Source: Sneathiellales bacterium
GTDB taxonomy: Bacteria; Pseudomonadota; Alphaproteobacteria; JANQFL01
DNA length: 34,588 nt
Assembly: GCA_028277845.1 (NCBI GenBank)
Contig: JANQFL010000086.1
Location: 1-34,588, forward strand
Direction of reading: 5' to 3'
The translations under genes and the position numbers were made by a program. How positions within the stretch are numbered: the first letter of the stretch is position 1; every line of letters starts with the position of its first letter. The notes beneath the pieces were generated by a model. The model saw only the letters and a list, made by a program, of their open reading frames with translations. It did not search any database and was not told where the DNA came from. Shown piece by piece: positions 2,751 through 15,904 of the stretch.

Positions 2751-4958
2751 CTACTTCCTGACGAAGATAAAATCGCCGCCGTCGTGGCCCGACAACCGGA
2801 TATCCGAGTATTCCGGCGTCTGCATGGCGTTCAGCATGACCGGCCGGCGGACTTTGACGAACAGTTCGGTGCCGTCCATGTAGCCGGTATTGTCCTTGAG
2901 CGCCGAAATGAAGGCCTTGGCGAACACCGAATGGGCGCCGCCGCCGCCGTCGGCGACGGGCTCGAGGCCGCCCGACGCCAGCGCGACCCGGGCGCGTTTC
3001 TTGCTCATTTTGCGCAGATAGTCGGGGTTGCGCAGGGTGGTGGAGACCGAGCGGGTCAGGGTGCCGGAGAAGCAGCTGTCCACCACCAGCATGACGTGCT
3101 TGGCGCTCATGGCCTTGAGGGTGTCGGTGATGGTCGCGTTGGACACCCAGCTGACCTGGGTGTCGGGCGAGGCATCCACCGGCAGCCAGTACCCGCGTTC
3201 CGACGAATAGTCGAGAATGCCGTGACCGGCGTAATAGATCAGCAGATTGTCGTTTTCCGTCAGCTTCTTGCGGTAGTCGTCGAGCGCCATGACGATATCC
3301 GCCCGCGTGACATCGAGCAGCAAATTGACGTCGAAACCGTATTCGCCTTCGAGAATGCCGGCGACCGTCTTGGCGTCGTTGACCGCCGTCACGAGTTTCG
3401 GCAACGATTGGTATTTGTTGTTGCCGATGACCAGGGCGTGATAATTGCCGAACTGCACATTGGCCTTGGCCAACTGTGCCTTGGAAAGTTTCCGCGTCTT
3501 CTTCGGTTCGGCCTGGGCCGGTGCCGAGGCGACCTGGGTCGCCGCGTTCGGATCCCGGTCGGTGAGAAGTTCGGAAAAGACGTAGCCCGTCTTGTTGTCG
3601 GGCAACGCCACGAGATACCAGCCGCTGCCCTTGACCTTGCCGAGCACCATGACCGATTCGCCGTTCGACAGCTTGCCGATGGCGTCGTTGCCCGAACCCG
3701 GGCCGCCGCGCACATTGGCGTTGGCGATGGCGTAGTAGGTGCCGACCACCGGTTCGAATTCCGGGATGGCCGAAGGCGCCGCCGGGCTGGCCGGTTGTTG
3801 CGACGTGGGGGCGGGCGCCGGTGCGGCGGCGGGTTGCGGGCTTGGCGCGGGCCGCGGCGCAGGCGCGACCGCCGCCGGACGGTAGGACGGGTCCACCGCG
3901 GCCAAATCGACCGACGTCGGAACGTAGTTGGGATCGACCACGCCGCCGTCGGCTTCCATGGTGGCGGCGATCTGGCTGACAGACGGCGGTGGCGGGGCCG
4001 GTTCCGGAATGGCCCGGGTGCGCATGACCCGGTCGTCGATGGCCGCCATTTCCGAGGGTTCGATGCGATGGCGCATACGGCCGACGCCGTCCCGGCCGGC
4101 TTCCTCGATGTTCCTGATCCGGGCGTTGGATGCCATGCGGTACCAGAAGAAGGCTTCGCGGTAATCCTGTTCGACGCCACGGCCCGCTTCGTACAAACGG
4201 GCGATGTTGATCTGCGCCTTGGCCCAGCCTTGCTTGGCCGAGCGCAAATACCAGCCCGCGGCCGTTTCGAAGTTGCGGCGGACGCCGATACCCCGTTCAT
4301 AGGCCCAGCCCAAGTCGTTTTGCGCCCGCGCAAATCCGTGCGCCGCGGCCGTCTTGAACCAGGCGATGGATTTTTCCAGGTCACGCTGAACGGTACGGTC
4401 GCCCTTCTGATAAATCAGGCCGACATAGTATTCCGACAGTGGATAGGCGTTTTTCGCGGACGGCATGTACCAGCGCAGTGCCTCGGAATAATCCTTCTTT
4501 ACACCGGCGCCCTGGAAATACATGTCGGCCAAATGAGTCTGGGCGTTGACGTCGTTCAATTCGGCGCCACGCAGATACCACTTGTACGCTTCGGAGTAAT
4601 TCTGCAGGTCGTACTGGTAGGTGCCGCCGATGTTCGCGAATGCCGCGCTGTATCCCTTGTCGGCAACGGCGAACAAATAAGGCAGGCCTTCATCGCGCCG
4701 CTTGGCGCGAAGCAGGGCGCGGCCCAGTTGGAACTGAAACCGCAAAACGTCGGGGTGCTGTTCCACCGCCTGGGCGCAGGCCTGAATGGCGGCCCGCGCG
4801 TTCATCAGGTCCCATTGCACGCCGGGTGCGACGCGCTCGGTGTCGGCCGGGTGCGCGGCCAATGTGTCACAGTCATGAATACCCGGGTCGGCCGCATGGG
4901 CCGAAGCCGCGGCAAGAAGGAAAGTCAGTGCCGTCGATGTCAGCAACGCGCGTCGCAT
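2751..4958 (-). CDS. Exported caspase-like protease with Sel1 repeats and an SH3-type domain
   Basis: A 735-residue protein with a signal peptide (residues 1-22, ending AHA). Residues 75-280 hold Sel1/TPR-type repeats (for example YSEAYKWYLRGAELNDVNAQ). A Pro/Ala-rich linker covers 315-400 and a bacterial SH3-type domain covers about 405-465 (ANVRGGPG...GYV). A C14 caspase domain covers about 505-735. The catalytic dyad is intact: His579 in YYAGHG and Cys629 in VDSCFSG. The family is a cysteine peptidase (metacaspase/orthocaspase type); the Sel1 and SH3 parts usually mediate protein or cell-wall contacts. GGAGG lies eight bases before the ATG. The Gly-rich gene 104 bases upstream points the same way, so both may share the promoter region near 5527. 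The periplasmic or surface location and the substrate are inferred or unknown. Confidence 0.93.
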   Translation of the reverse strand: MRRALLTSTALTFLLAAASAHAADPGIHDCDTLAAHPADTERVAPGVQWDLMNARAAIQACAQAVEQHPDVLRFQFQLGRALLRAKRRDEGLPYLFAVADKGYSAAFANIGGTYQYDLQNYSEAYKWYLRGAELNDVNAQTHLADMYFQGAGVKKDYSEALRWYMPSAKNAYPLSEYYVGLIYQKGDRTVQRDLEKSIAWFKTAAAHGFARAQNDLGWAYERGIGVRRNFETAAGWYLRSAKQGWAKAQINIARLYEAGRGVEQDYREAFFWYRMASNARIRNIEEAGRDGVGRMRHRIEPSEMAAIDDRVMRTRAIPEPAPPPPSVSQIAATMEADGGVVDPNYVPTSVDLAAVDPSYRPAAVAPAPRPAPSPQPAAAPAPAPTSQQPASPAAPSAIPEFEPVVGTYYAIANANVRGGPGSGNDAIGKLSNGESVMVLGKVKGSGWYLVALPDNKTGYVFSELLTDRDPNAATQVASAPAQAEPKKTRKLSKAQLAKANVQFGNYHALVIGNNKYQSLPKLVTAVNDAKTVAGILEGEYGFDVNLLLDVTRADIVMALDDYRKKLTENDNLLIYYAGHGILDYSSERGYWLPVDASPDTQVSWVSNATITDTLKAMSAKHVMLVVDSCFSGTLTRSVSTTLRNPDYLRKMSKKRARVALASGGLEPVADGGGGAHSVFAKAFISALKDNTGYMDGTELFVKVRRPVMLNAMQTPEYSDIRLSGHDGGDFIFVRK

Positions 4959-5062: not shown

Positions 5063-5329
5063 TTACCAACCGCCGCCGCCACCGCCTCCGCCACCGCCGC
5101 CTCCGCCGCCGTCACCGCCGCCGCCGTCACCGCCGACCTCGATGGAGGTGAAGCCGCCGGCTTCGGTGCCATCGGAGGCGGACCGGCCTTGCGGATTGTA
5201 CGGGTTCGCCAATTCGACGCCTGTTGGTACGGAGATTTGCAGGGCCGTGGCCGAGCCTGTAGCCAGAACGGCCGTGCCGGCCAGTGCGATGGCCGCCGCC
5301 AGGCTGATGCTGTGCACATACCTTCTCAT
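5063..5329 (-). CDS. Small exported Gly-rich protein
   Basis: An 88-residue protein with a signal peptide (about residues 1-29, hydrophobic AAAIALAGTAVLA core, then SATA). A short polar middle is followed by a C-terminal tail made almost only of glycine with a few Asp, ending in Trp. The DNA of the tail is a GGN-type microsatellite, so length variation by slippage is likely. AAGGGAG lies about six bases before the ATG. It precedes the caspase gene on the same strand. No family is recognised. A surface or matrix role would be guesswork. Confidence 0.75.
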   Translation of the reverse strand: MRRYVHSISLAAAIALAGTAVLATGSATALQISVPTGVELANPYNPQGRSASDGTEAGGFTSIEVGGDGGGGDGGGGGGGGGGGGGGW

Positions 5330-5526: not shown

Positions 5527-5542
5527 TGTGATAAATATCACT
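5527..5542. promoter_or_regulatory. CRP-type operator upstream of the Gly-rich/caspase genes
   Basis: TGTGATAAATATCACT matches the CRP consensus TGTGA-N6-TCACA at nine of ten half-site bases. It overlaps the stop codon of the gene 5538-6749 and lies about 200 bases upstream of the Gly-rich gene. A regulator with a matching recognition helix is encoded at 8828-9535. Confidence 0.6.
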
Positions 5543-6749
5543 CCGAGACTTCGATTTTCAGCTCCGAAGACGCCATGGACTTGACCGGTAAACGCCGAAA
5601 CACGGTCTTCACGTCCGCAAGCCCGATATTCGTGGTCGCCGCAAAACCTTCCTTCATCAGACCGGCGGGAAGGTCTGCGCGGACATCCCGGTCCGTGGCG
5701 TAGCAGAGAAACCGGGCGGTGCTGCCCTTGTCCGACAGTTGAAACGCCACCGGCAGCCGCGATCCCGGCAGGGAAACGGGGTGACTGGCCGCGATCCAGG
5801 AGTCGACCGAGTTGTCATAGGGGAAAAGCGTGACGAGGCCCTGCTTGTCGTCGAAGTAGAAACAATACAAATGGGCGTCGAAATTGCTTTGCAGCGTCAG
5901 TGTCGCCATCTCGCCCGGTTCATAGCGCGGTTGGCGGCCGCGGTCGCTCGTCAGGAACAGGCCGGGCGTCTGATGGGCGGCGGCCATCTGAGTCAGGATG
6001 GCATGCGCCTGTATGTCGCATCCGGCATCGGCGAGCGCTTTGATCGCATCCGCCGGTGCATTCGGAATCCGGTCGACGATGGAAATACTGAATCGCGTAC
6101 CGGCGATCTGGCCGGTCGGCTGAACGACATAGTCTTCGCCGTTTTGCAACGGCAAATCGTTCGGCCAGGGTGCCGTGTTCTGATCCTTGACCAAGGAAAT
6201 GCTGACGCTCTTTTTCGTTCTCGCGTTGCGCAAGGCAACGCTGCCGGCGGCACTGGCATCGGACCTGAATATCTGCGCACTCCTGCCTGACAGGCAGTAC
6301 TTTCCGCCCAGCGCGACGTCGATCGCATCGCTTGGGCGGTCGATGTTGTTGCCGCCGGCATAGGCCGAGCGGCTGGCACCCAAGGTGTTCGTCGTCCGCT
6401 CCGTCCGCTTGATCAGACTGGCCAATGCGGAAACCAGCGCACTGCCTTCGCCGGCCTTGCGCCCGGCCTGCGGAACGCCGTCGAAGGGGCCGGATATGAC
6501 AAGCGTTTTTCCGGATTGGTCGAGCAAGGTCAGCGACGCGCCGGCCGGTACGGTCACGCCGGCGCCGTCGGTTACCACATGTCCCGCGCCATAGCCGACG
6601 GCCGTCGACGCGACGACGATCATATCGGCCCGTGCCGCGTGGTATGTCGCCAGCGACATCGCCGACACGGCGGCCATCAAACCGATCGACGTGGCGACAC
6701 AACGCGTTTTCTTCGCAATTCTCACGGTGAACTTCGCTTGCTTTTCCAT
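5538..6749 (-). CDS. Exported FecR-like/DUF4384 protein
   Basis: A 403-residue protein. The N terminus has a basic stretch and a hydrophobic segment (about residues 18-41, ending ARA) that is a signal peptide or anchor. Residues 43-92 (VTVPAGASLTLLDQSGKTL) look like the beta-rich FecR-type domain. The C-terminal part from about 262 begins LFLTSDRG.QP.Y.PGE and is a DUF4384-type domain. The same domain, with similar wording, ends the CsgG-like lipoprotein at 9870. No catalytic residues are recognised. It is transcribed away from the divergent cyclase gene at 6885, with 135 bases between the two starts. The role in the envelope is inferred. Confidence 0.75.
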   Translation of the reverse strand: MEKQAKFTVRIAKKTRCVATSIGLMAAVSAMSLATYHAARADMIVVASTAVGYGAGHVVTDGAGVTVPAGASLTLLDQSGKTLVISGPFDGVPQAGRKAGEGSALVSALASLIKRTERTTNTLGASRSAYAGGNNIDRPSDAIDVALGGKYCLSGRSAQIFRSDASAAGSVALRNARTKKSVSISLVKDQNTAPWPNDLPLQNGEDYVVQPTGQIAGTRFSISIVDRIPNAPADAIKALADAGCDIQAHAILTQMAAAHQTPGLFLTSDRGRQPRYEPGEMATLTLQSNFDAHLYCFYFDDKQGLVTLFPYDNSVDSWIAASHPVSLPGSRLPVAFQLSDKGSTARFLCYATDRDVRADLPAGLMKEGFAATTNIGLADVKTVFRRLPVKSMASSELKIEVSE

Positions 6750-6884
6750 GCCTGAACCGTTTTAGGCTATCATCCGGCCGAATTCGCAACAACCTCGGGT
6801 GGCGGCGCGCGTGGCGGACATATCGATACCCCGGCTCCGATTGTCAACGGACGGCCCGTTCATGCCGCCGCGGGAGACACGCCG

Positions 6885-8825
6885 GTGATGCGCATCCGAT
6901 TGTCGGAATTGGCGGTACTGGCCGCCATCGGATTGGCCGTTGCCGGCGCCGTGATCTTGGCGCACGGGTATTTCGGTCCCTTGTCTTCGGCGGAAGCCCG
7001 CCTCGATGACATCCGCGCCGCCTACCTGACCCCGTATGAAGCACAGAACGAGCAGATCGTCATACTGCAGATCGACGAAGCGACGTTGTCGGGCTTTCCA
7101 TACCGGTCGCCGATCGACCGGGGTTTCCTGGCCAATGCGGTGACCATACTGGAAGCCGCCGGCGCCAAGGCGATCGGCATGGACGTGTTGTTCGACCGGC
7201 CAACGGAACCGGCCAAGGACGATGCCTTGCGCAAGGCGTTGCTGCAGGCGCGTGTTCCGGTCGTCGTTGCCTGGGCCAATCCGCCGGTCACCCTCAGTGC
7301 CAAACAGGTGGCCTATCACGAAGCCTTTCTCGACGGTGTCGCCAAGGGTTTCGCCAACCTGTCGAAGGACGCGGCCGATGACGTCGTGCGGACGGCGGTG
7401 CCGGTTCGCACCGGTGCGGCGGCGAAGGAGGGCATGAGCTTTCCCGCCGCCTTGGCCAGGGTTGCCGGTGCCGAACTGCCCGCGGAACCGTTCGCCATTG
7501 CCTACCGCCGGGGGCCGGACGCGGAAACGGCGCCCTTCAAGTCCTATCCGGCCAACGCCATCGCCCTGCTGCCCAAGGACTGGTTCGCCGGCAAGATCGT
7601 TCTGATCGGCACGAATCTGGACGACTCGGATCGCCATCGCACGCCGCTCGATGCGCGCACGCCTGGACAACTGTCGACCGGCATTTCGATCCATGCGCAG
7701 GTGTTGGCCCAATTGCTGGACGGGCGGCAGGTGTCGCGTAGCGGTTTGATGACGTTCGTTGTGCTCGTGCTGGCCGCCGCATTGCTCGGTATCACCCTGG
7801 CGATGCTGCCCGTCAATCCGTGGCTGGTTACGGCGGCCGCGGTCATCGTCGGTGCGGGGTACTGGGTCGGCACGTTTGCGGTATATCAAACCACCGGACT
7901 GTTCATCCCGGTTCTGCCGCCCACATTGGCGTTCGCCGGCACGCTGGGTCTCGGGGCGGCCTATGCCGGCCGCCGGGCCCGGGCGCAAAGGCGCTATATC
8001 CGAGACGCGTTCTCGCGCTATGTCTCGCCCGCCATCGTGGCGCGGCTGGAACACGACCCGGACCGGCTGAAGCTGGGCGGCGAACGGCGCGCCATGACGT
8101 TCGTGTTCACGGACCTGGCGGGATTCACTTCACTTTGCGAACGCACCGACCCGGCCGTGTTCGCGCCCGTGCTCAACGGCTATCTCGACGGCATGGTCGA
8201 TATCGTTCTGGCGCACGAAGGCACCATCGACAAAATTGTCGGCGACGCCGTCGTGGCGTTCTTCGGCGCGCCGGAAGATCAGCCCGATCATTGTGAACGG
8301 GCGGTCCGCTGCGCCTTGGCGCTGGACGTGTTCGCCCAGGACTTCGCCGCCAAGTCGCGGGCCGAGGGCATCGATCTCGGCGTCACGCGCATCGGCGTGC
8401 ACAGCGGCACCGCGACGATCGGCAATTTCGGCGGCAGTACGTTCTTCGACTACACCGCCCACGGCGATGCGGTGAACACGGCGGCCCGCCTGGAAAGCGT
8501 CAACAAGCACATCGGCACCCGCATCTGCGTCAGCGGTGAAACCGCAAAACAATGTGACGGAATTCCGTTCCGGCCCATCGGGGACTTGGTGCTGAAAGGC
8601 AAGGAAGAGGCGATCCCTTCGTTCGAGCCGTTGCACGGCCGGACCAATGGATACGCCGACTCCAATGCTTATGCTGAGGCCTTCGACAGTCTCGACACCG
8701 AAGACGCCGCGCGCGCGTTCTCGTCATTGTCGGGCGTGGCGCCCGACGATCCGTTGGTCCGGTTCCATCAGAAGCGGCTGCTGAACGGTGAGCGCGGCCG
8801 CAGAATCGTGTTCCGGGAAAAGTAG
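6885..8825 (+). CDS. CHASE2-domain class III adenylate cyclase
   Basis: A 646-residue inner-membrane sensor enzyme making cAMP from ATP. Order: one N-terminal transmembrane helix (about 8-27), an extracytoplasmic CHASE2 domain (about 40-280), three transmembrane helices (about 288-360) and a cytoplasmic class III cyclase domain (about 398-590). Metal-binding Asp410 (FTDLAGFTS) and Asp454 (KIVGDAV), purine-selecting Lys450 and Thr524 (DYTAHG), and the transition-state pair Asn531/Arg535 (NTAARLE) are all present. This argues for an active adenylate, not guanylate, cyclase. The start is GTG 6885 or ATG 6888, with GGGAGA nearby. It ends two bases from the convergent regulator gene. The CHASE2 ligand is unknown. 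Confidence 0.94.
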   Translation: MMRIRLSELAVLAAIGLAVAGAVILAHGYFGPLSSAEARLDDIRAAYLTPYEAQNEQIVILQIDEATLSGFPYRSPIDRGFLANAVTILEAAGAKAIGMDVLFDRPTEPAKDDALRKALLQARVPVVVAWANPPVTLSAKQVAYHEAFLDGVAKGFANLSKDAADDVVRTAVPVRTGAAAKEGMSFPAALARVAGAELPAEPFAIAYRRGPDAETAPFKSYPANAIALLPKDWFAGKIVLIGTNLDDSDRHRTPLDARTPGQLSTGISIHAQVLAQLLDGRQVSRSGLMTFVVLVLAAALLGITLAMLPVNPWLVTAAAVIVGAGYWVGTFAVYQTTGLFIPVLPPTLAFAGTLGLGAAYAGRRARAQRRYIRDAFSRYVSPAIVARLEHDPDRLKLGGERRAMTFVFTDLAGFTSLCERTDPAVFAPVLNGYLDGMVDIVLAHEGTIDKIVGDAVVAFFGAPEDQPDHCERAVRCALALDVFAQDFAAKSRAEGIDLGVTRIGVHSGTATIGNFGGSTFFDYTAHGDAVNTAARLESVNKHIGTRICVSGETAKQCDGIPFRPIGDLVLKGKEEAIPSFEPLHGRTNGYADSNAYAEAFDSLDTEDAARAFSSLSGVAPDDPLVRFHQKRLLNGERGRRIVFREK

Positions 8826-8827
8826 GC

Positions 8828-9535
8828 TCAGACGAAATAGTCGGCCAGGTCGTTGATGGTGTCGGCGTCGACGATGGTGATGGTGCCGCTGTCCATGGAG
8901 ATCAGGCCTTCCTTGTGCCAGGATCTCAGTTGGCGATTGATGTTCTCCCGCGACAGGCCGACCAGGCCGCCCAATTCGCGCTGGGTCAGTTTCAATTCGA
9001 TCCGCGTGCCCTCGTCGGTCTCCTGGCCGTAATTGTCGGCCAGCCAGACAAGGCGTTTCGCCAAACGGGTCGGCAGGGTCAGGAACGCGGAGTCCTCGAC
9101 CAGCTCCGTGGTCAGGCGCACCCGGTGGCACAACACTTCGATGAGCTTGATGGCCCAGTGGGGATGGGTTTCCAGGAACGGCAGGAAATCGCGCCTCTGC
9201 AGCACCAGAATATCCGACGCATCCATCGCCGTGGCGTTGGCCGTACGGTCCTTGCCGTCCAGAAGCGCGATCTCGCCGAAAAACGTGCCCGGATCGATGA
9301 TGTTGAGCACCACTTCCTTGCCTTCGCCCGAGAAATTGCTGATTTTCACCCGGCCGCTGATGACGCCCATGACGCTGATTCCGGGGTCGTTTTTCAGGAA
9401 AATGGTCTGGTTGGGCTTGTAGCTGCGGACCTGCACATGCGGCAGCAGGGCGTCCATTTCCTCGTCGTCGAGATGGTTGAACAGGCGGTTGTTCGCCATC
9501 ATCTTCCGGATTTCTTCGGTCCGTGCCCGGGCCAT
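8828..9535 (-). CDS. CRP-type cAMP-responsive transcription regulator
   Basis: A 235-residue CRP/FNR-family protein. Residues 16-125 form the cyclic-nucleotide domain. The phosphate cassette FFGEIALLDGKDRTANA (85-101) has the Glu, Arg97 and Thr98 expected for cAMP. The dimer helix carries Thr142-Thr143 where E. coli CRP has Thr-Ser. The HTH recognition segment SRENINR (195-201) keeps the Arg, Glu and Arg positions of E. coli SRETVGR, so a TGTGA half-site is expected. No N-terminal Cys cluster is seen, so it is not an FNR-type oxygen sensor. I chose the ATG at 9535 because AGGGGGA precedes it; an ATG 17 codons upstream has no ribosome site. It converges with the cyclase gene, two bases apart. 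Confidence 0.92.
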   Translation of the reverse strand: MARARTEEIRKMMANNRLFNHLDDEEMDALLPHVQVRSYKPNQTIFLKNDPGISVMGVISGRVKISNFSGEGKEVVLNIIDPGTFFGEIALLDGKDRTANATAMDASDILVLQRRDFLPFLETHPHWAIKLIEVLCHRVRLTTELVEDSAFLTLPTRLAKRLVWLADNYGQETDEGTRIELKLTQRELGGLVGLSRENINRQLRSWHKEGLISMDSGTITIVDADTINDLADYFV

Positions 9536-9691
9536 GCCGTGTCCCCCTGACGCTCCGGCGGTCCTTTTTTGCCGCCGCACATGCATTTAATCGGTTTGTC
9601 CGGGCGGGAGCAACCAAGCCCTTTGTCAAAACACCGCGCCTGGTGCAACATAGGGCCAAATAACGAACGCAACGATTGCCGAAGTCGTGGG

Positions 9692-9707
9692 TGTGATAAA
9701 AATCAAA
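9692..9707. promoter_or_regulatory. CRP/FNR-type operator between the regulator and CsgG-like genes
   Basis: TGTGATAAAAATCAAA has a perfect left half-site and TCAAA on the right. The core GTGATAAAAATCA is the same as in the box at 13313. It would also score as an FNR-type box (one mismatch to TTGAT-N4-ATCAA). Confidence 0.6.
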
Positions 9708-9795
9708 CGTGTGCTGTGATTCGAGGAACAGGACCGGCGCTGCAAAAGCGTCAGACTGTGGGCAAGGTTCAATCACCCGTGGGGCCGATGACAAG

Positions 9796-9818
9796 GACCG
9801 GCAAGTCGGTTGCCGGTC
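9796..9818 (+). promoter_or_regulatory. Leader hairpin upstream of the CsgG-like gene
   Basis: GACCGGCAA (9796-9804) pairs perfectly with TTGCCGGTC (9810-9818) around a 5-base loop, 51 bases before the ATG. No T-run follows, so a regulatory or stabilising structure is more likely than a terminator. Confidence 0.5.
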
Positions 9819-9869
9819 ATCGGTTCACGGGTCGGGAATAGGGGCCGTCCCGTCGCGGGCGGAAGTGCC

Positions 9870-11327
9870 ATGAAATCGACCGTACGAACAGCCGCCATCG
9901 CCTGTGCCTGCCTGGCCGTCGCCGGGTGTCAGACGACGCAGCCGACGACCAAAAGCGCCTTGAAGACGGCCACGCCCAAGTCACCGCCGGCGCGGACCAT
10001 CACCGGTTTCAGCGATGCGTTGAGCTGCATGGACGATCTTTTCGCCAAGCACAACGTCAACGGATTGACGGTGACCGCGCAAGACATTCCGGACCAGACC
10101 CAACGCACGGCGTCGGGCACCAAGGATATGCTGATTTCGGCCCTGTCGCGTATGTCGGCCCGCAGCGGCGCCTTCAAGTTTGTCGCCTATGGCAGCGATT
10201 TGTCGGACATTGTCGACCTGCAGGGCGCCCACAAGGGCAGCAGCAGTTTCGTCACGCCCGACTTTTTCCTGCGCGGCTCCATCAGCCAGTTGGACGAAGG
10301 CGTGCAGCAGAAATCGGGCGGCGCCGGCATCAACACGCCGGTGTTCAATCTCGGCGCCCAGGCCAGCCAGCTCGTGTCGGTGGTCGGCGTCGACATGAAC
10401 ATGGGCTGTGTCAAGAACCTGCAGATCATCCCCGGCCTGACGTCCAGCAATTCCGTTGCCGTGGTGCGGCAGGGTGCCGGCGCGAATGTCGGCGGCGTCC
10501 TCAATGCCCAAAGCATCAGCCCCATCGGTATCAACCTGGATTTCAGTGTCGATCAGAACGAGGGGACCCACCAGGCGGTCCGTACGCTGATCGAACTGGG
10601 CTCCATCGAACTGATGGGCAAACTGACCGGCGTGCCCTACAAGTCGTGCCTGTCGGCCGAGGCCAAGGCGGCGCTGCAGTCGGTGTCCGTGCCGGCCATG
10701 CTGCCGTGCAACGTGGCCTCCAACGGCGGTTCCAGCGCCAACGTGGCGGCCGCGCAACCCGAACCCGCTCCGCAACCCGTGGCCGCACCGGCGCAGCCCG
10801 CCGCGGCGCCGGTCCAGCCGCCGGCAGACACACAACCCGCCGCCCAGGCCGCCGCCCAGGACACCACCCAGGCCGCCCCCCAGGCCGCCGATACCGCCGC
10901 ATCCGATTTCGTGCTGACCAGCGACCGGGGCGACAATCCGAGCTACAAGCTGGGCGAAAGCATCACCCTGCGCCTGCAAAGCGCCCAGGACACGTACATG
11001 CACTGCTTCTATCAGCAGGCCAACAACACGGTGGTCAAGGTCTTCCCCAACCGCTTCCGCCAGTCGGCGGTCATCCGCGGCGGAGATATCGTCGCCATTC
11101 CCGACGGGCAGATGCCGTTCCGGCTGAAGTTCGACCAGCCGTCGTCCCGGGAAGCCTTCAGCTGCATTGCGTCGTCGACGGATTTGAGCGAGCGCCTGCC
11201 GCTGGAGATCGTCGAGCGCGATCTGGAGCCCATCCCCGTCAACAGCCTGGATGACATCACCGCGGTCTTCGATGAGGTCACCGAGGGCAACTACACGCAG
11301 CGCGATATCGTCATCCAGGTGCATTGA
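9870..11327 (+). CDS. CsgG-like lipoprotein with a C-terminal DUF4384-type domain
   Basis: A 485-residue lipoprotein: signal peptide with lipobox LAVAGC, Cys20 lipidated. Residues about 45-260 resemble the CsgG/HfaB family, with a conserved-looking core DFFLRGSISQLDEGV (131-145) and a paired SVVGVDMNMGCV strand pattern. CsgG forms outer-membrane secretion channels for amyloid or holdfast proteins; whether this one makes a pore is inference. A Pro/Ala/Gln-rich linker covers 290-345. The DUF4384-type domain (347-485) starts FVLTSDRGDNPSY, close to that of the protein at 5538. The start was moved 20 codons into the open frame to fit the lipobox; CGGAAG precedes it. The OmpA-type gene follows after 46 bases, probably in one operon. 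Confidence 0.83.
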   Translation: MKSTVRTAAIACACLAVAGCQTTQPTTKSALKTATPKSPPARTITGFSDALSCMDDLFAKHNVNGLTVTAQDIPDQTQRTASGTKDMLISALSRMSARSGAFKFVAYGSDLSDIVDLQGAHKGSSSFVTPDFFLRGSISQLDEGVQQKSGGAGINTPVFNLGAQASQLVSVVGVDMNMGCVKNLQIIPGLTSSNSVAVVRQGAGANVGGVLNAQSISPIGINLDFSVDQNEGTHQAVRTLIELGSIELMGKLTGVPYKSCLSAEAKAALQSVSVPAMLPCNVASNGGSSANVAAAQPEPAPQPVAAPAQPAAAPVQPPADTQPAAQAAAQDTTQAAPQAADTAASDFVLTSDRGDNPSYKLGESITLRLQSAQDTYMHCFYQQANNTVVKVFPNRFRQSAVIRGGDIVAIPDGQMPFRLKFDQPSSREAFSCIASSTDLSERLPLEIVERDLEPIPVNSLDDITAVFDEVTEGNYTQRDIVIQVH

Positions 11328-11373
11328 AGCACGGGATCGAAGCGGACGCGCACGCAAGAGAACGGATAGAGCC

Positions 11374-11988
11374 ATGACTTCAAGAACACGCCGATCGGCC
11401 GGAATGATGAGCAGCCTGTTTGCCGTGATGGCATTGACGTTCGGTACGATGATTTCGACACCGGCATCGGCCGAGGATCTGAAGGTCTTCCGTGACCGGC
11501 CGCCGACCAGCGAAGAGGTGTCCAATATTCTGTTCCCGGAACTGAACAAAGCGGGGCAGGGGCGCACCCGGGGCATCGACCGCGGAATCGTGTTCATCAA
11601 TAAGGACGCCAAGGCCCCCGATCAGGCGCCGGCACAACAACAGCAGGCGCGGGAATTCGGCATGGCGGTGGAATTCGCCTACGATTCGGCCGAGATCATG
11701 GACCAGTCGGCCCCGTATCTCGACAGTCTGGGCAATGTTCTCAGCAACAACCGGGCCATCGAGTTCTCCATTTATGTGGTCGGGCACACGGATGCCCGCG
11801 GCACCGACGACTACAACCTCGCGCTCTCGAAGCGCCGCGCGGAGTCCGTGAAGACCTATCTGGTTCAGGTTCATGGCGTCGATCCGGGCCGGCTGATCAC
11901 GGTCGGCAAGGGCGAAGCGGAGTTGATCGACCAGGCCGACCCCGACAGCGCCGCCAACCGGCGGGTGGAATTCAAGCGCATTCAGTAG
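11374..11988 (+). CDS. OmpA-type peptidoglycan-binding envelope protein
   Basis: A 204-residue exported protein. The signal peptide spans about residues 1-33 (TPASA/ED). A linker with a Gln-rich stretch (85-91) precedes the OmpA C-terminal domain (about 95-204). The diaminopimelate-contact residues are visible in VGHTDARGTDDYNLALSKRRAESV: Asp140 and the Arg pair 154-155; the end is NRRVEF. The family anchors outer-membrane complexes to peptidoglycan. No beta-barrel is present. The open frame extends 41 codons upstream into the preceding gene; the ATG at 11374 is preferred because the signal peptide starts there. It likely partners the CsgG-like lipoprotein just upstream. Confidence 0.9.
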   Translation: MTSRTRRSAGMMSSLFAVMALTFGTMISTPASAEDLKVFRDRPPTSEEVSNILFPELNKAGQGRTRGIDRGIVFINKDAKAPDQAPAQQQQAREFGMAVEFAYDSAEIMDQSAPYLDSLGNVLSNNRAIEFSIYVVGHTDARGTDDYNLALSKRRAESVKTYLVQVHGVDPGRLITVGKGEAELIDQADPDSAANRRVEFKRIQ

Positions 11989-12018
11989 AAAAACGCCTGT
12001 TTTCAGCCAAAAACCGGG

Positions 12019-12034
12019 TGTGACAATAAACACT
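12019..12034 (+). promoter_or_regulatory. Weak CRP-type half-operator
   Basis: TGTGACAATAAACACT has a perfect left TGTGA and a poor right half. It lies 97 bases before the basic-protein gene at 12131. It is kept because its position matches that of the perfect box at 13313 relative to the next, related gene. Confidence 0.35.
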
Positions 12035-12042
12035 GCCCATAG

Positions 12043-12126
12043 GTGCCGGGCGGCACGGTGAAAGCCGCCGGTACCGGCGAAACTCTCTCCTGTTCACGGG
12101 GCATGCCCCAGCGAAACCGGGAGAGA
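12043..12126 (+). promoter_or_regulatory. Structured mRNA leader that may hide the ribosome site
   Basis: Three stem-loops are stacked before the ATG at 12131. They are GTGCC/GGCAC (12043-12056), the palindrome GCCGGTACCGGC (12067-12078) and an outer stem TCTCTCC (12084-12090) with GGAGAGA (12120-12126). The outer stem encloses the palindrome GGGGCATGCCCC (12098-12109). GGAGAGA is the Shine-Dalgarno sequence, so the outer stem would block ribosome binding. No match to a known riboswitch is recognised. Confidence 0.5.
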
Positions 12127-12130
12127 CACC

Positions 12131-13192
12131 ATGATCCGCCAGACCGCCATCGTCCTCGCCGCCGTCGCGTCCCTCGCCGCCGCCACCGCCGCGAACGCCA
12201 ATGCGCCGTCACTGGGTGACGGTTTTCGCAATTTCGGCAACGCGTTTGCCAAGCAACGCACCGCCATCGATACGTTGAAACGCGGCCAGCGGGCACAGAA
12301 CAGCCGCATGGCCCTGCGCATGCAGACCCGCCCGGGCCGGCAGGCCGGCCGCGCCATCGAGGCCGTCCAGGATACCCTGCGGCACCGGGGCGACGTCGCC
12401 CGTCACGCCCGTATGAAAACCAAAGTCACCCGGACCCTGCAAACCACCGGCAGGAAAACCGTGACCTTCGCCAAGCAGGTAGGGGTCAAGACATATACGG
12501 TCGACCGTCCGATGACATCGACCCGGGACAGGTTTGCCACCCGCACCAAGGGCGCCGGCAACATGACCCGCAAGCAGGCCCAGGCGCTGAACAATACCCG
12601 CCGGATGCACAAGCGCGGCAAGGTTGCCCAGGTTGCCCGCCGCACGGCCAAAGCCGCCAACGTCACCCGGACCACGCGAGCGGCCAAATCCGCACGGGCC
12701 GTCAAGACTGTCCGCGTGGTCGGGCACGCCCGGAACGTCAAGCACACGGCCAAGACAGCCAAGCGTTCGTACAAAGTCGCCAAGACCGCCAGGACGATGA
12801 AGAATTTGAAAGCCTTGTCGGGCGGCGCCGGTCTGGCGGTGGCCGAGGGTGTCCTCGGCGCCGACATTCCGGATCCGTTTGAAGCCGCCGCCTGGACCGT
12901 GAACACTCTGAAGGACCCGAGGAACGCGCCGAAAGCCATCGCCAAGCTGGGTAAGGATGCGGTCAAGACCGTCGCCGACATCGGCAAGACCATCACCAAC
13001 CCCAAGAAGCTGGCGGAAAACACCGTCAAAACCGCCAAGGCCGTCGGCAAAGTCGCCGGAGATGTCGGCAAGGGCATCGGTTTCGCCATCAAACACCCCG
13101 ACAGGGCCGTAAAGATTGCCGCAAAGGACGTCGGCAAGGCCGCCGTAACCGTCGGATGCGCCATCATCAAACTGTTTGGCGGATGCAGGTAA
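12131..13192 (+). CDS. Exported, very basic Ala/Lys/Arg-rich protein
   Basis: A 353-residue protein with a clear signal peptide (residues 1-24, ending NANA). The rest is rich in Ala, Lys, Arg and Thr, with degenerate short repeats such as RTAKAANVTRTTRAAKSAR and almost no acidic residues before about residue 220. A less polar stretch (about 228-252, ALSGGAGLAVAEGVLGADIP) is followed by Lys-rich amphipathic helices (GKDAVKTVADIGKTI). The tail GCAIIKLFGGCR holds two Cys (343, 352). The next gene (13417) has the same plan and a similar Cys tail, so the two are probably distant paralogues. The composition suggests binding to polyanions, but the export signal argues against a chromosomal histone role. 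The function is unknown. Confidence 0.8.
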   Translation: MIRQTAIVLAAVASLAAATAANANAPSLGDGFRNFGNAFAKQRTAIDTLKRGQRAQNSRMALRMQTRPGRQAGRAIEAVQDTLRHRGDVARHARMKTKVTRTLQTTGRKTVTFAKQVGVKTYTVDRPMTSTRDRFATRTKGAGNMTRKQAQALNNTRRMHKRGKVAQVARRTAKAANVTRTTRAAKSARAVKTVRVVGHARNVKHTAKTAKRSYKVAKTARTMKNLKALSGGAGLAVAEGVLGADIPDPFEAAAWTVNTLKDPRNAPKAIAKLGKDAVKTVADIGKTITNPKKLAENTVKTAKAVGKVAGDVGKGIGFAIKHPDRAVKIAAKDVGKAAVTVGCAIIKLFGGCR

Positions 13193-13218
13193 CACCGGCT
13201 GAATTCGGAACCTTACGC

Positions 13219-13240
13219 AAAGGGCGCTTCGGCGCCCTTT
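13219..13240 (+). terminator. Hairpin terminator after the basic-protein gene
   Basis: AAAGGGCGC (13219-13227) pairs with GCGCCCTTT (13232-13240) around a TTCG tetraloop, 27 bases after the stop. The T-run is short (TTTGT), so termination may be partial. Confidence 0.75.
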
Positions 13241-13312
13241 GTACGTTCGGATGATGGAATCGGGTCTTGACGCCGAATTTAGAATAGTCCGAAGTCGCAA
13301 ATATTCATGATT

Positions 13313-13328
13313 TGTGATAAAAATCACA
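13313..13328. promoter_or_regulatory. Perfect CRP-consensus operator
   Basis: TGTGATAAAAATCACA is a full match to TGTGA-N6-TCACA. It sits 88 bases before the ATG at 13417. I could not place a convincing -10 box, so activation versus repression is open. Confidence 0.7.
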
Positions 13329-13416
13329 CTTGCGGTGTGTTGCACGGCACCGTCCGAAACCGTGCGGCGTTGTTTGATCCCGTTTGCAGAAAACCACAAA
13401 CCATCGGGGCAGGGAC

Positions 13417-15738
13417 ATGATCCGGGGCACGACAGCACTTCTCACCCTTTCCATCGCTTTGGCCATGCCTGCCGCCGTATCGGCGGACGGAACGACACCC
13501 GGAGGCTCCGGTTCGCCGGCCGGGTCCCAGGTTCCCGAACAACGCGAGTTCCAGAACGAACCGAACCGGAATGCGTTGCAGAAACAGGGCGAGGCGGCGC
13601 AAACAAAACGCAGCCAACTTCAGACCCAACGCCAGCTCCAGCAGCAGGGCGATGCCGCGCAGGCCAAACGCACGCAGCTGAAAGCCCAAAACCAACTGCA
13701 GAAGCAGGGCGATGCCGCGAAAGCGAAGCGGGCAAACATCCAGAACCAACGCCAACTGCAGCAGCAGGGCGATGCCGCACAAGCCAAGCGTTCGCAGTTG
13801 AAGGCCCGGAACCAGTTACAGAAGCAAGGCGACGCCGCGCAGGCGAAACGGACGCAACTGAAGGCCCAAAACCAACTGCAGCAGCAAGGTGATGCCGCCA
13901 AGGCCAAGCGCTCGCAAATTCAGACCCAACGTCAGTTGCAACAACAGGGCGACGCGGCGCAGGCCAAGCGCACACAACTCAAAGCCACCAATCAGCTGGA
14001 CGAAAGCGGCAAGGCCGCGCAGGCCAAGCGCAATCAGTTGAAGGCCCAGAACCAGCTGCAAAAGCAGGGCGATGCCGCCAAGGCCAAACGCACGCAAATA
14101 CAGACTCAGCGCCAGTTGCAGCAGCAAGGCGATGCCGTGAAAGCGAAACGCTCGCAGCTCAAGGCCGCCAACCAGCTTGACGAAAGCGGCAAGGCTGCGC
14201 AGGCCAAGCGGGCGAAGATCAAAGCGGCCGATCAGCTCAACCAGAAGGGCAAGGCGGCACAGGCCAAACGCGCCAAGATCAAGGCGGCCGATCAGCTCAA
14301 CCGGAAAGGCAAGGCGGCTCAGGCGAAGCGGGCCAACGCCAAGGCGCTGAACCAGCTTGACGAAAGCGGCAAGGCGGCCCAGGCCAAGCGGGCGAAGATC
14401 AAGGCGGCCGACCAGCTCAATCAAAAGGGCAAGGCCGCCCAGGCGAAACAGGCCAACGCCAAGGCGCTCAACCAACTGGACGAGAGCGGCAAGGCGGCCC
14501 AGGCCAAGCGCGCCAAGATCAAGGCCTTGAACCAGCTCGATGAGAGCGGCAAGGCGGCCCAGGCGAAGCGGGGCAAGAACGCCGCCAAGGCGGCCAAGGC
14601 CGCAAAGGCCGCCGACAAGGTCGACGATGCCGCCAAGGCCGCCAAGACGGCCAAGCGGACCAAGAACGCCGCCAAGGTGGCGAAGACGGCGAAACAAGGC
14701 AAGAACGCCGCCAATGCAGCCAAGGCGGCAAAAGCAGCCCGGACAGCGAAAACCGCCAAGACCGCCGTCAAGGTCGGTAAGGGTGCGCGCTTGGCCAAGG
14801 GCGCGGCCACGGTGGCCAAGGGCACGGCCGTCGGCATTATCGTCAGCGACATCACCGGCGCCGACCAGCTACTGGTCGACGGCATCACCGATCCCGGCGG
14901 CAGCCTGGGCAACGCCACCGACCGCAAACAGATCAACAATTACGCCCACAGCCGCATCGACTATTTCGAAAAGAACTACGTCCAGGGCGGCCACCTGAAA
15001 AAGGGCTTCGGCAAGGTCGACAAGCTGACCGGCGGCAAGATCTCGAAAGGCGCCAAGAAGGGCTTCAACGCGGCCAACAAGTTGACTGGCGGGCGCCTCG
15101 GCGTGGCCGGCAAGGCCGCCGGCAAGCAGGTCAAGCGCACGACCGAAGCCGGCATGGGCCTGTTGCGCAACAACTTCGACGACACCTACGGCACCATGCT
15201 GACCGCACCGGACATGGTCACCGGTTCCCGCGACGTAGCCCGCAACGTGCTCAAGTTCAAGCCCGTCGGCAATGCCGCCAGGGCGCTCGACCACGCCACC
15301 GGCGGGCACCTGTCCAAGGGTTACAAGAACGTCGACCGGCTGACCGGCGGCCGCGTCACCAAGGGCGCCAAGGCGGTCGGCAAGGCCTGGAACAAGGGCG
15401 TCGACTACGCCACCGGCGGCGTGCTCGAGGATGTCGGCGAAGGCGCCCGCAAGGGCGCCAAGGCCATCGCCAACACCAAGGCGGCCAAGGCCGTCGGCAA
15501 CGCGGCGACGACGGTGGGCAAGGCGATCATCAAGTCCAACCAGGCCCAGGCCGTCGCCAAGGCCGCGACCACGGTGGGCAAGGCCATCGCCAAAACCAAG
15601 ACCGGCAAGGCGGTGGGCAAGACCGTCAAGAAGATCGGCAAATCCAAGGTCGTCAAGAACGTCGGCAAGGAAGCCAAGAAGGCCGGCTGCGGCGTCGGCA
15701 ACCTGTTCAAGAAGAAAAAGAACAAGAAGAAGTGCTGA
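13417..15738 (+). CDS. Exported basic repeat protein with 17 twenty-residue repeats
   Basis: A 773-residue protein. The signal peptide (about residues 1-24) ends AVSA. From about residue 49 to 388 come 17 repeats of 20 residues built on a core xQLxxxGxAAxAKRxxLKAx. Early units are Gln-rich (QLQQQGDAAQAK); later ones are QLDESGKAAQAK or QLNQKGKAAQAK. A KAAKAAK-type stretch runs to about 465. A hydrophobic spot with SDITGADQLLVDGITDPGG follows at about 470-500. The rest has LTGG-containing and Lys-rich helices, with two Cys at the end (758, 773: GCGVGNLF...C). GGGGCAGGG precedes the chosen ATG. A CRP-consensus box lies upstream and a terminator lies at 15789. It is probably helical; the function is unknown. 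Confidence 0.82.
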   Translation: MIRGTTALLTLSIALAMPAAVSADGTTPGGSGSPAGSQVPEQREFQNEPNRNALQKQGEAAQTKRSQLQTQRQLQQQGDAAQAKRTQLKAQNQLQKQGDAAKAKRANIQNQRQLQQQGDAAQAKRSQLKARNQLQKQGDAAQAKRTQLKAQNQLQQQGDAAKAKRSQIQTQRQLQQQGDAAQAKRTQLKATNQLDESGKAAQAKRNQLKAQNQLQKQGDAAKAKRTQIQTQRQLQQQGDAVKAKRSQLKAANQLDESGKAAQAKRAKIKAADQLNQKGKAAQAKRAKIKAADQLNRKGKAAQAKRANAKALNQLDESGKAAQAKRAKIKAADQLNQKGKAAQAKQANAKALNQLDESGKAAQAKRAKIKALNQLDESGKAAQAKRGKNAAKAAKAAKAADKVDDAAKAAKTAKRTKNAAKVAKTAKQGKNAANAAKAAKAARTAKTAKTAVKVGKGARLAKGAATVAKGTAVGIIVSDITGADQLLVDGITDPGGSLGNATDRKQINNYAHSRIDYFEKNYVQGGHLKKGFGKVDKLTGGKISKGAKKGFNAANKLTGGRLGVAGKAAGKQVKRTTEAGMGLLRNNFDDTYGTMLTAPDMVTGSRDVARNVLKFKPVGNAARALDHATGGHLSKGYKNVDRLTGGRVTKGAKAVGKAWNKGVDYATGGVLEDVGEGARKGAKAIANTKAAKAVGNAATTVGKAIIKSNQAQAVAKAATTVGKAIAKTKTGKAVGKTVKKIGKSKVVKNVGKEAKKAGCGVGNLFKKKKNKKKC
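13561..14580 (+). repeat. 17 tandem 60-bp coding repeats
   Basis: Seventeen in-frame 60-base units without spacers. They encode the 20-residue repeats of the protein at 13417. Units differ at many wobble positions and in a few residues. Two unit types alternate irregularly, and the Lys content rises towards the 3' end. The spread of differences shows an old array kept by selection on the protein. Confidence 0.95.
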
Positions 15739-15827: not shown

Positions 15828-15904
15828 TGGTCGGGGAGAGAGGATTCGAACCTCCGGCCCCTGCCTCCCGAAGACAGTGCTCTACCAGGCTGAGCTACTC
15901 CCCG
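15828..15904 (-). tRNA. tRNA-Pro (anticodon CGG)
   Basis: A 77-base cloverleaf on the minus strand with an encoded CCA end (complement of 15828-15830). The acceptor stem is CGGGGAG/CTCCCCG, the D arm contains AGCTCAGCCTGGTAGAGC, and the T loop is GGTTCGAATCC. The anticodon stem CTGTC/GGCAG holds the loop TTCGGGA, so the anticodon is CGG, reading CCG proline codons. Confidence 0.96.

What the first reader, a model, noticed from the sequence alone, without database searches (positions are those of the whole stretch)
5527..13328. A self-contained cAMP-CRP circuit controlling exported proteins
In one block lie a CHASE2 adenylate cyclase with all catalytic residues, a CRP-type regulator with a cAMP-type pocket and a CRP-like recognition helix (SRENINR), and CRP-consensus boxes in the block's own intergenic regions. 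The boxes are TGTGATAAATATCACT at 5527, TGTGATAAAAATCAAA at 9692, a weak half at 12019, and the perfect TGTGATAAAAATCACA at 13313. The downstream genes encode signal-peptide or lipoprotein products: Gly-rich protein plus caspase, CsgG-like plus OmpA, and two basic proteins. The suggestion is an envelope sensor that raises cAMP and directly switches a surface or matrix programme. Residues and boxes are seen; the circuit is inference.
Basis: partly seen in the sequence, partly recalled or inferred. Interest (0 to 1): 0.85.

Follow-up and report, generated by a model that had tools for sequence, protein, structure and literature searches.

The report
CRP regulon of exported basic proteins
A bacterial gene block carries a membrane-sensing cAMP-making enzyme, a cAMP-receptor-type gene switch, and the switch's DNA landing sites in front of genes for exported proteins; the same sites also sit in front of similar exported-protein genes elsewhere in the genome, so this is a real regulon but not a sealed-off local circuit.

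Summary
The block encodes a CHASE2 class III cyclase with adenylate-cyclase catalytic residues and a CRP-family protein with an R-E-x-x-x-R recognition helix and intact cNMP pocket. TGTGATAWWWATCA occurs exactly three times in the 5.39-Mb genome, all in this block. The 'weak' 12019 box is also supported: two paralogs of its gene on contig C8 carry TGTGACAATTAACACA at the same distance from ATG. A near-match on C12, found by DNA pattern alone, again precedes an exported lysine/arginine-rich protein. Box-to-ATG distance in these five genes is 96.5-107.5 bp. Across 36 CRP homologs, TGTGAN6TCACA is enriched next to crp, and the recognition Glu is kept in 35. A genome of another family has the same CsgG/CRP/CHASE2-cyclase order and orientation, with a box. 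'Self-contained' is wrong: the regulon leaves the block, the genome has 32 class III cyclase domains, and a second CRP-like protein has an RE..R helix. The principle is known from Sinorhizobium CyaD/K-Clr. New are the DNA specificity, the CsgG-like/DUF4384/caspase setting and the basic-protein regulon. cAMP dependence and binding are inferred.

The parts
2751..4958 (-). Exported Sel1-repeat / SH3 / caspase-like (C14) protein, downstream of the Gly-rich gene
   Evidence: Pfam Sel1 1.9e-34, Peptidase_C14 7.5e-27, SH3_3 3.5e-14
5063..5329 (-). Gly-rich 88-aa protein with signal peptide (corrected ORF)
   Evidence: translation
5527..5542 (.). CRP-type box TGTGATAAATATCACT, centre 205.5 bp upstream of the Gly-rich ATG; overlaps 3' end of the DUF4384 gene
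5538..6749 (-). Exported protein: N-terminal domain of the kind found beside CHASE2 cyclases plus DUF4384; proposed periplasmic partner of the cyclase
   Evidence: DUF4384 4.9e-10; homologs next to most of the top CHASE2 cyclase relatives
6885..8825 (+). CHASE2 - transmembrane - class III adenylate cyclase
   Evidence: CHASE2 3.5e-31, Guanylate_cyc 1.5e-20; aligned to CyaB 3r5g: metal Asp, Lys/Asp base-selecting and Asn/Arg residues kept
8828..9586 (-). CRP-family regulator (likely start 9535); convergent with the cyclase, divergent from the CsgG-like gene
   Evidence: cNMP_binding, HTH_Crp_2; best solved relative 7pza, S. meliloti Clr; R-E helix and pocket conserved in homologs
9692..9707 (.). 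CRP-type box TGTGATAAAAATCAAA between divergent crp and CsgG-like gene
   Evidence: L092 has TGTGAAGCAGTTCACG in the matching intergenic region
9870..11327 (+). CsgG-like lipoprotein with C-terminal DUF4384
   Evidence: DUF4384 8.9e-18; Foldseek top hits CsgG, E 1.5e-6
11329..11988 (+). OmpA-family exported protein
   Evidence: OmpA 4e-21
12019..12034 (.). CRP-type box TGTGACAATAAACACT, centre 104.5 bp upstream of basic protein 1 ATG
   Evidence: paralog promoters on C8 carry TGTGACAATTAACACA at 102.5-103.5 bp
12131..13192 (+). Exported basic protein 1 (net charge about +56); two paralogs on contig C8
13313..13328 (.). Perfect box TGTGATAAAAATCACA, centre 96.5 bp upstream of basic protein 2 ATG
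13417..15738 (+). Exported basic protein 2 (773 aa, net charge about +112) with 20-residue tandem repeats

Best explanation
A periplasmic or envelope signal is read by the CHASE2 domain, probably with the neighbouring exported DUF4384 protein as partner, and sets adenylate cyclase activity. cAMP loads the neighbouring CRP-family regulator. The loaded dimer binds TGTGA-N6-TCACA-type boxes with an AT-rich core and probably activates transcription of: crp and the CsgG-like/OmpA genes; the Gly-rich/caspase genes; the two basic exported proteins of the block; and at least three further basic exported proteins on contigs C8 and C12. In effect it is a cAMP-CRP regulon for a surface or secreted protein programme, with its sensor, switch and a CsgG-like outer-membrane lipoprotein encoded together but its targets partly dispersed. 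Shown here by sequence: domains, boxes, their genome-wide rarity, their fixed distance from ATG, and comparative footprints. Inferred: that this CRP binds these boxes, that cAMP from this cyclase is the ligand source, the direction of regulation, and the nature of the signal.
For: (1) Boxes: TGTGATAWWWATCA is exact only here in 5.39 Mb. The pooled pattern TGTGAYAAWWAWCAMW has six exact matches: four here, two before C8 paralogs of basic protein 1; one of its three 1-mismatch matches (C12:72188) precedes a barely similar but again exported, highly basic protein. Box-to-ATG distance in these five genes is 96.5-107.5 bp. No other exported basic protein appeared among 244 gene calls from the same genome. 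(2) Regulator: among 36 homologs, TGTGAN6TCACA lies within about 350-400 bp of crp in 5 (perfect) and 11 (up to 1 mismatch), against 0 and at most 3 for the other 29 arm permutations; recognition R-E kept in 35 of 36 and the cNMP pocket largely kept. (3) Linkage: G354 has CsgG-like / CRP (49%) / CHASE2 cyclase (35%) in the same order and orientation, plus OmpA and caspase, with a box between CsgG-like and crp. In G232 and G347 boxes lie 92.5, 103.5 and 109.5 bp (the last with 2 mismatches) before exported repeat-protein genes near the CsgG-like gene; 3 of 10 upstream regions hit against at most 1 for permuted arms at 1 mismatch. (4) Precedent: S. meliloti CHASE2 cyclases CyaD1/D2/K act through the CRP-like Clr on targets including a periplasmic protein (PMC5498481, PMC10127613, PMC13001267).
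Against: No expression or binding data. cAMP is diffusible and 31 other class III cyclase domains exist, so this cyclase need not be the source. A second RE..R CRP-like protein on C12 has a TGTGACGGCCGTCACA box 82 bp upstream of its called start and could read the block boxes. The window CRP is the only member of its class-wide family found in this genome, so it might be the general CRP rather than a dedicated one. The pooled pattern was written after seeing the sites. At 2 mismatches one permuted arm scores higher than TGTGA. G347 has no box between crp and the CsgG-like gene.
Confidence: 0.62

Rival explanations
1. The window CRP is this bacterium's general cAMP receptor with a genome-wide regulon; the block is only where its strongest sites and its gene happen to lie, and cAMP comes from many cyclases.
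For: Nine perfect TGTGAN6TCACA sites in the genome against one for the reversed control, including before a cyclase on C76 and a lipoprotein operon on C89; 32 cyclase domains; only member of its family in the genome.
Against: The elsewhere sites mostly have GC-containing cores, and the AT-core type is nearly confined to the block and basic-protein genes; conserved linkage to a CHASE2 cyclase and CsgG-like gene in G354.
Confidence: 0.3
2. The boxes are read by the second CRP-like protein on contig C12 (RETVAR helix) and not by the block's CRP.
For: It has an RE..R helix and a perfect palindrome 82 bp upstream of its called start.
Against: Its own site and the C76 site have a GC core (TGTGACGGCCGTCACA), unlike the block boxes; homologs of the block CRP have TGTGAN6TCACA footprints next to their own genes.
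Confidence: 0.15
3. The boxes are FNR/FixK sites (TTGATN4ATCAA) controlling an oxygen response.
For: The genome has an FNR-like protein with an N-terminal Cys cluster on C97; the 9692 site is one mismatch from the FNR consensus.
Against: The other boxes differ on both half-sites, and the C8/C12 boxes (TGTGACAATTAACACA, TGTGCCAAATAACACA) do not fit FNR.
Confidence: 0.04
4. The boxes are chance AT-rich palindromes in intergenic DNA.
For: The loose consensus is no commoner in the window than expected.
Against: Exact core found only here genome-wide; paralog and cross-genome positional conservation.
Confidence: 0.03

Closest known systems
Sinorhizobium meliloti CyaD1/CyaD2/CyaK - Clr cAMP pathway (PMC5498481, PMC10127613, PMC13001267)
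   Same: CHASE2-domain cyclases raise cAMP, which activates a CRP-like regulator that switches genes including a periplasmic protein (SMc02178) and a FecR-domain protein; Clr (7pza) is the best-scoring solved relative of the window CRP and has the same TT ligand motif.
   Different: Clr reads GTNNCNNNNGNNAC with an SRPKVNR helix; the window CRP has SRENINR and TGTGAN6TCACA boxes. The window packs cyclase, CRP and targets together, and the targets (CsgG-like/DUF4384, caspase, basic repeat proteins) differ.
Escherichia coli CRP (CAP)
   Same: R-E-x-x-x-R recognition helix, cNMP pocket, TGTGAN6TCACA boxes.
   Different: Predicted targets are exported proteins; the neighbouring cyclase is a class III CHASE2 enzyme, not class I; scores below the NCBIfam CRP cut-off (91.5 vs 266 bits).
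Magnetospirillum mtxA - CHASE2 adenylate cyclase gene cluster (PMC4439547)
   Same: A gene for an exported protein is directly followed by a CHASE2 adenylate cyclase gene.
   Different: No CRP or boxes reported there; sequence relation between MtxA and the window's 5538-6749 product was not tested.
CsgG curli pore / HfaB holdfast anchor lipoprotein
   Same: Predicted fold of the CsgG-like protein matches CsgG structures best; weak HfaB profile hit.
   Different: Fused to DUF4384; no CsgA/E/F genes recognised; low overall model confidence (pLDDT 58).

Membership tests
cNMP-binding CRP (Crp/Fnr superfamily) | cNMP-binding domain plus Crp-type winged HTH | tested here: met
   Pfam cNMP_binding 1.1e-21, HTH_Crp_2 1.6e-16
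cNMP-binding CRP (Crp/Fnr superfamily) | Ligand-pocket residues (GE, R-S/T, TT/TS on the central helix) | tested here: met
   FFGE, RT, TT present and largely conserved in 36 homologs; same TT as Clr (PMC10127613)
cNMP-binding CRP (Crp/Fnr superfamily) | Cognate TGTGAN6TCACA sites | tested here: met
   footprints next to homologs, 5/36 perfect vs 0 for 29 permutations; by comparative footprint, not by binding
cNMP-binding CRP (Crp/Fnr superfamily) | cAMP (not cGMP) dependence of DNA binding | not testable with these tools
   needs purified protein
E. coli CRP equivalog (NCBIfam NF008732) | Score above the curated cut-off | tested here: not met
   91.5 bits vs cut-off 266: works like CRP, not a member of that equivalog
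S. meliloti Clr | Clr recognition helix and GTNNCNNNNGNNAC box | tested here: not met
   SRENINR vs SRPKVNR; TGTGAN6TCACA boxes
CHASE2 class III adenylate cyclase | CHASE2 sensor plus class III catalytic domain with metal, base and transition-state residues | tested here: met
CHASE2 class III adenylate cyclase | Makes cAMP rather than cGMP | not testable with these tools
   Lys/Asp base-recognition pair suggests ATP; enzyme assay needed
CsgG secretion lipoprotein | Lipobox cysteine and CsgG fold | tested here: met
   invariant Cys20; Foldseek top hits all CsgG; hairpin tips are low-confidence
CsgG secretion lipoprotein | Secretes an amyloid or other substrate | not testable with these tools
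   no CsgA-type gene recognised
FNR/FixK | N-terminal Fe-S cysteines | tested here: not met
   window CRP lacks them; C97 paralog has them

The most novel reading that the evidence does not exclude
A cAMP-CRP-controlled secretion programme in which a CHASE2 cyclase and its exported partner sense the envelope, and CRP co-induces a CsgG-like outer-membrane pore and its own exported repeat-protein substrates (lysine/arginine-rich in this lineage, GGxxIGGNA-repeat in others), i.e. a new curli-like matrix system with lineage-specific substrates.
Probability: 0.2. Interest if true: 0.8.

Novelty: new variant of a known kind. Interest (0 to 1): 0.55.

Why it matters
CHASE2 signals are mostly unknown and few CHASE2 cyclases have assigned outputs. 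Here a compact module, conserved in at least one other family, gives a testable line from CHASE2 cyclase to CRP to named promoters, with boxes at a fixed place before exported proteins. It would also give a function to DUF4384/CsgG-like/caspase clusters and to an uncharacterised set of highly basic exported proteins.

Tried and rejected
Loose-consensus count in the window: no excess, so the tight core was used. Genome-contig search with the CRP: only distant hits. Fold search with the 5538-6749 protein: only low-TM Ig-like matches, no identification. Box search around CHASE2-cyclase/partner loci: a modest excess of TGTGA arms only (13 vs mean 3.7, next 9). Basic protein 1 homologs in 288 other genomes of the class: none. 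FNR and chance explanations rejected (see rivals). No paper in the library holds both CsgG and DUF4384.
Full report
What is there. The window is one whole contig (C114) of a 5.39-Mb, 124-contig genome; only class-level relatives were held, and no tool named the organism. From left to right the block holds: an exported Sel1/SH3/caspase protein (2751-4958, -); an 88-aa Gly-rich exported protein (5063-5329, -); an exported DUF4384 protein (5538-6749, -); a CHASE2 class III cyclase (6885-8825, +); a CRP-family regulator (8828-9586, -); a lipoprotein with DUF4384 (9870-11327, +); an OmpA-family protein (11329-11988, +); and two highly basic exported proteins (12131-13192 and 13417-15738, +).

The enzyme and the switch. 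The cyclase aligns to solved class III cyclases through the metal-binding Asp residues, the Lys/Asp base-selecting pair and the Asn/Arg transition-state residues, consistent with ATP as substrate. The regulator's best solved relative is 7pza, which is S. meliloti Clr (PMC10127613). It keeps the ligand-pocket pattern, but where Clr has SRPKVNR the window protein has SRENINR, i.e. the E. coli-type R-E-x-x-x-R. It scores far below the E. coli CRP equivalog cut-off (91.5 vs 266 bits).

Are the boxes real? By a loose consensus the window is not enriched. By their actual core they are striking: TGTGATAWWWATCA has three exact matches in the genome, all in this block. The perfect 16-mer with up to two mismatches has five places genome-wide, three here, p about 1e-5 for the clustering. 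The fourth, weak, box at 12019 would not stand alone. But basic protein 1 has two paralogs on contig C8 (about 43-44% identical), both preceded by TGTGACAATTAACACA, and the 12019 box TGTGACAATAAACACT sits at the same distance from its ATG.

The regulon leaves the block. Pooling the sites (TGTGAYAAWWAWCAMW, written after seeing them) gives six exact matches in the genome: four here and two on C8. One of only three single-mismatch matches, C12:72188, lies 107.5 bp upstream of another exported Lys/Arg-rich protein that has only marginal sequence similarity to the others. The reversed control also gave three single-mismatch matches, so that match counts because of its gene and position, not because of its number. 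Box centre to ATG is 96.5, 102.5, 103.5, 104.5 and 107.5 bp for the five basic-protein genes. Among 244 gene calls sampled from the same genome, the only exported, strongly basic proteins were the C8 pair themselves; the sample is a small part of the genome. C42:45627 and the perfect C89:9407 site also precede exported or lipoprotein genes.

Does this CRP read such boxes? In 36 homologs (35 other genomes of the class; G354 gives two), TGTGAN6TCACA occurs near crp in 5 loci (perfect) or 11 loci (up to one mismatch). The other 29 permutations of the arm give 0 and at most 3. The recognition R-E is kept in 35 of 36. In the CRP tree the window protein falls with this class-wide family, and the genome's other Crp/Fnr proteins lie on long branches whose placement is unsure.

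Is the arrangement conserved? In G354, of another family, CsgG-like, CRP (49%) and CHASE2 cyclase (35% over 564 aa) have the same order and relative orientation, with OmpA and a caspase protein alongside and TGTGAAGCAGTTCACG between CsgG-like and crp. In G347 the CRP (47%) is again divergent from the CsgG-like gene. There, and in G232, exported repeat proteins near the CsgG-like gene have boxes 103.5, 109.5 (two mismatches) and 92.5 bp upstream of ATG; at one mismatch permuted arms reach at most 1 of 10 regions against 3. G354 and G347 also carry an MscS-type channel with a cNMP-binding domain nearby, a second likely cAMP effector. Separately, most of the top CHASE2-cyclase relatives have an adjacent exported protein homologous to the N-terminal domain of 5538-6749. 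That protein is therefore better read as a partner of the sensor than as an output; this is inference.

CsgG. Pfam has no CsgG hit, but the AlphaFold2 model (mean pLDDT 58, pTM 0.41) matches CsgG structures first (E 1.5e-6). The family is also weakly hit by the HfaB holdfast-anchor profile. The fold assignment is plausible; the model's details are not reliable.

Mechanism. Most likely: envelope signal, CHASE2 cyclase (with exported partner), cAMP, CRP, boxes, exported proteins including a CsgG-like outer-membrane lipoprotein. Sequence supports the parts, the boxes and their positions. Binding, ligand, source of ligand, sign of regulation and signal are inferred. 'Self-contained' fails: targets lie on at least two other contigs, cAMP has up to 31 other possible sources, and a second RE..R CRP-like protein exists.

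Relation to the known. S. meliloti uses CHASE2 cyclases CyaD1/D2/K and Clr to switch genes including a periplasmic protein and a FecR-domain protein (PMC5498481, PMC13001267), so the principle is known. The DNA specificity, gene setting and basic-protein regulon differ. I rate it a new variant of a known kind.

Noticed in passing
L092:14019-15464 and L093:6505-7974: MscS-type channels with a C-terminal cNMP-binding domain lie near the CRP/CsgG-like genes in two relatives; none was seen in the window block.
   Followed up: partly
G000 contig C8 (L214:10205-11215 and 13165-14193, -): Two closely related (84%) exported basic proteins, paralogs of window 12131-13192, sharing promoter and box.
   Followed up: yes
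L090:10593-11036, L091:10487-10894, L093:5992-6315 and 8163-8492: Small exported GGVxIGGNA-repeat proteins of unknown family near CsgG-like/DUF4384 genes; possible secreted matrix proteins.
   Followed up: partly
G000 contig C12 46619-46634 and contig C76 13177-13192: A second CRP-like gene and a TPR-cyclase gene each have the identical palindrome TGTGACGGCCGTCACA upstream, hinting at a separate GC-core CRP regulon.
   Followed up: partly
window 13577-14578: 60-bp (20-residue) tandem repeats inside basic protein 2.
   Followed up: partly
window 15831-15904 (-): A tRNA gene just downstream of the block.
   Followed up: no
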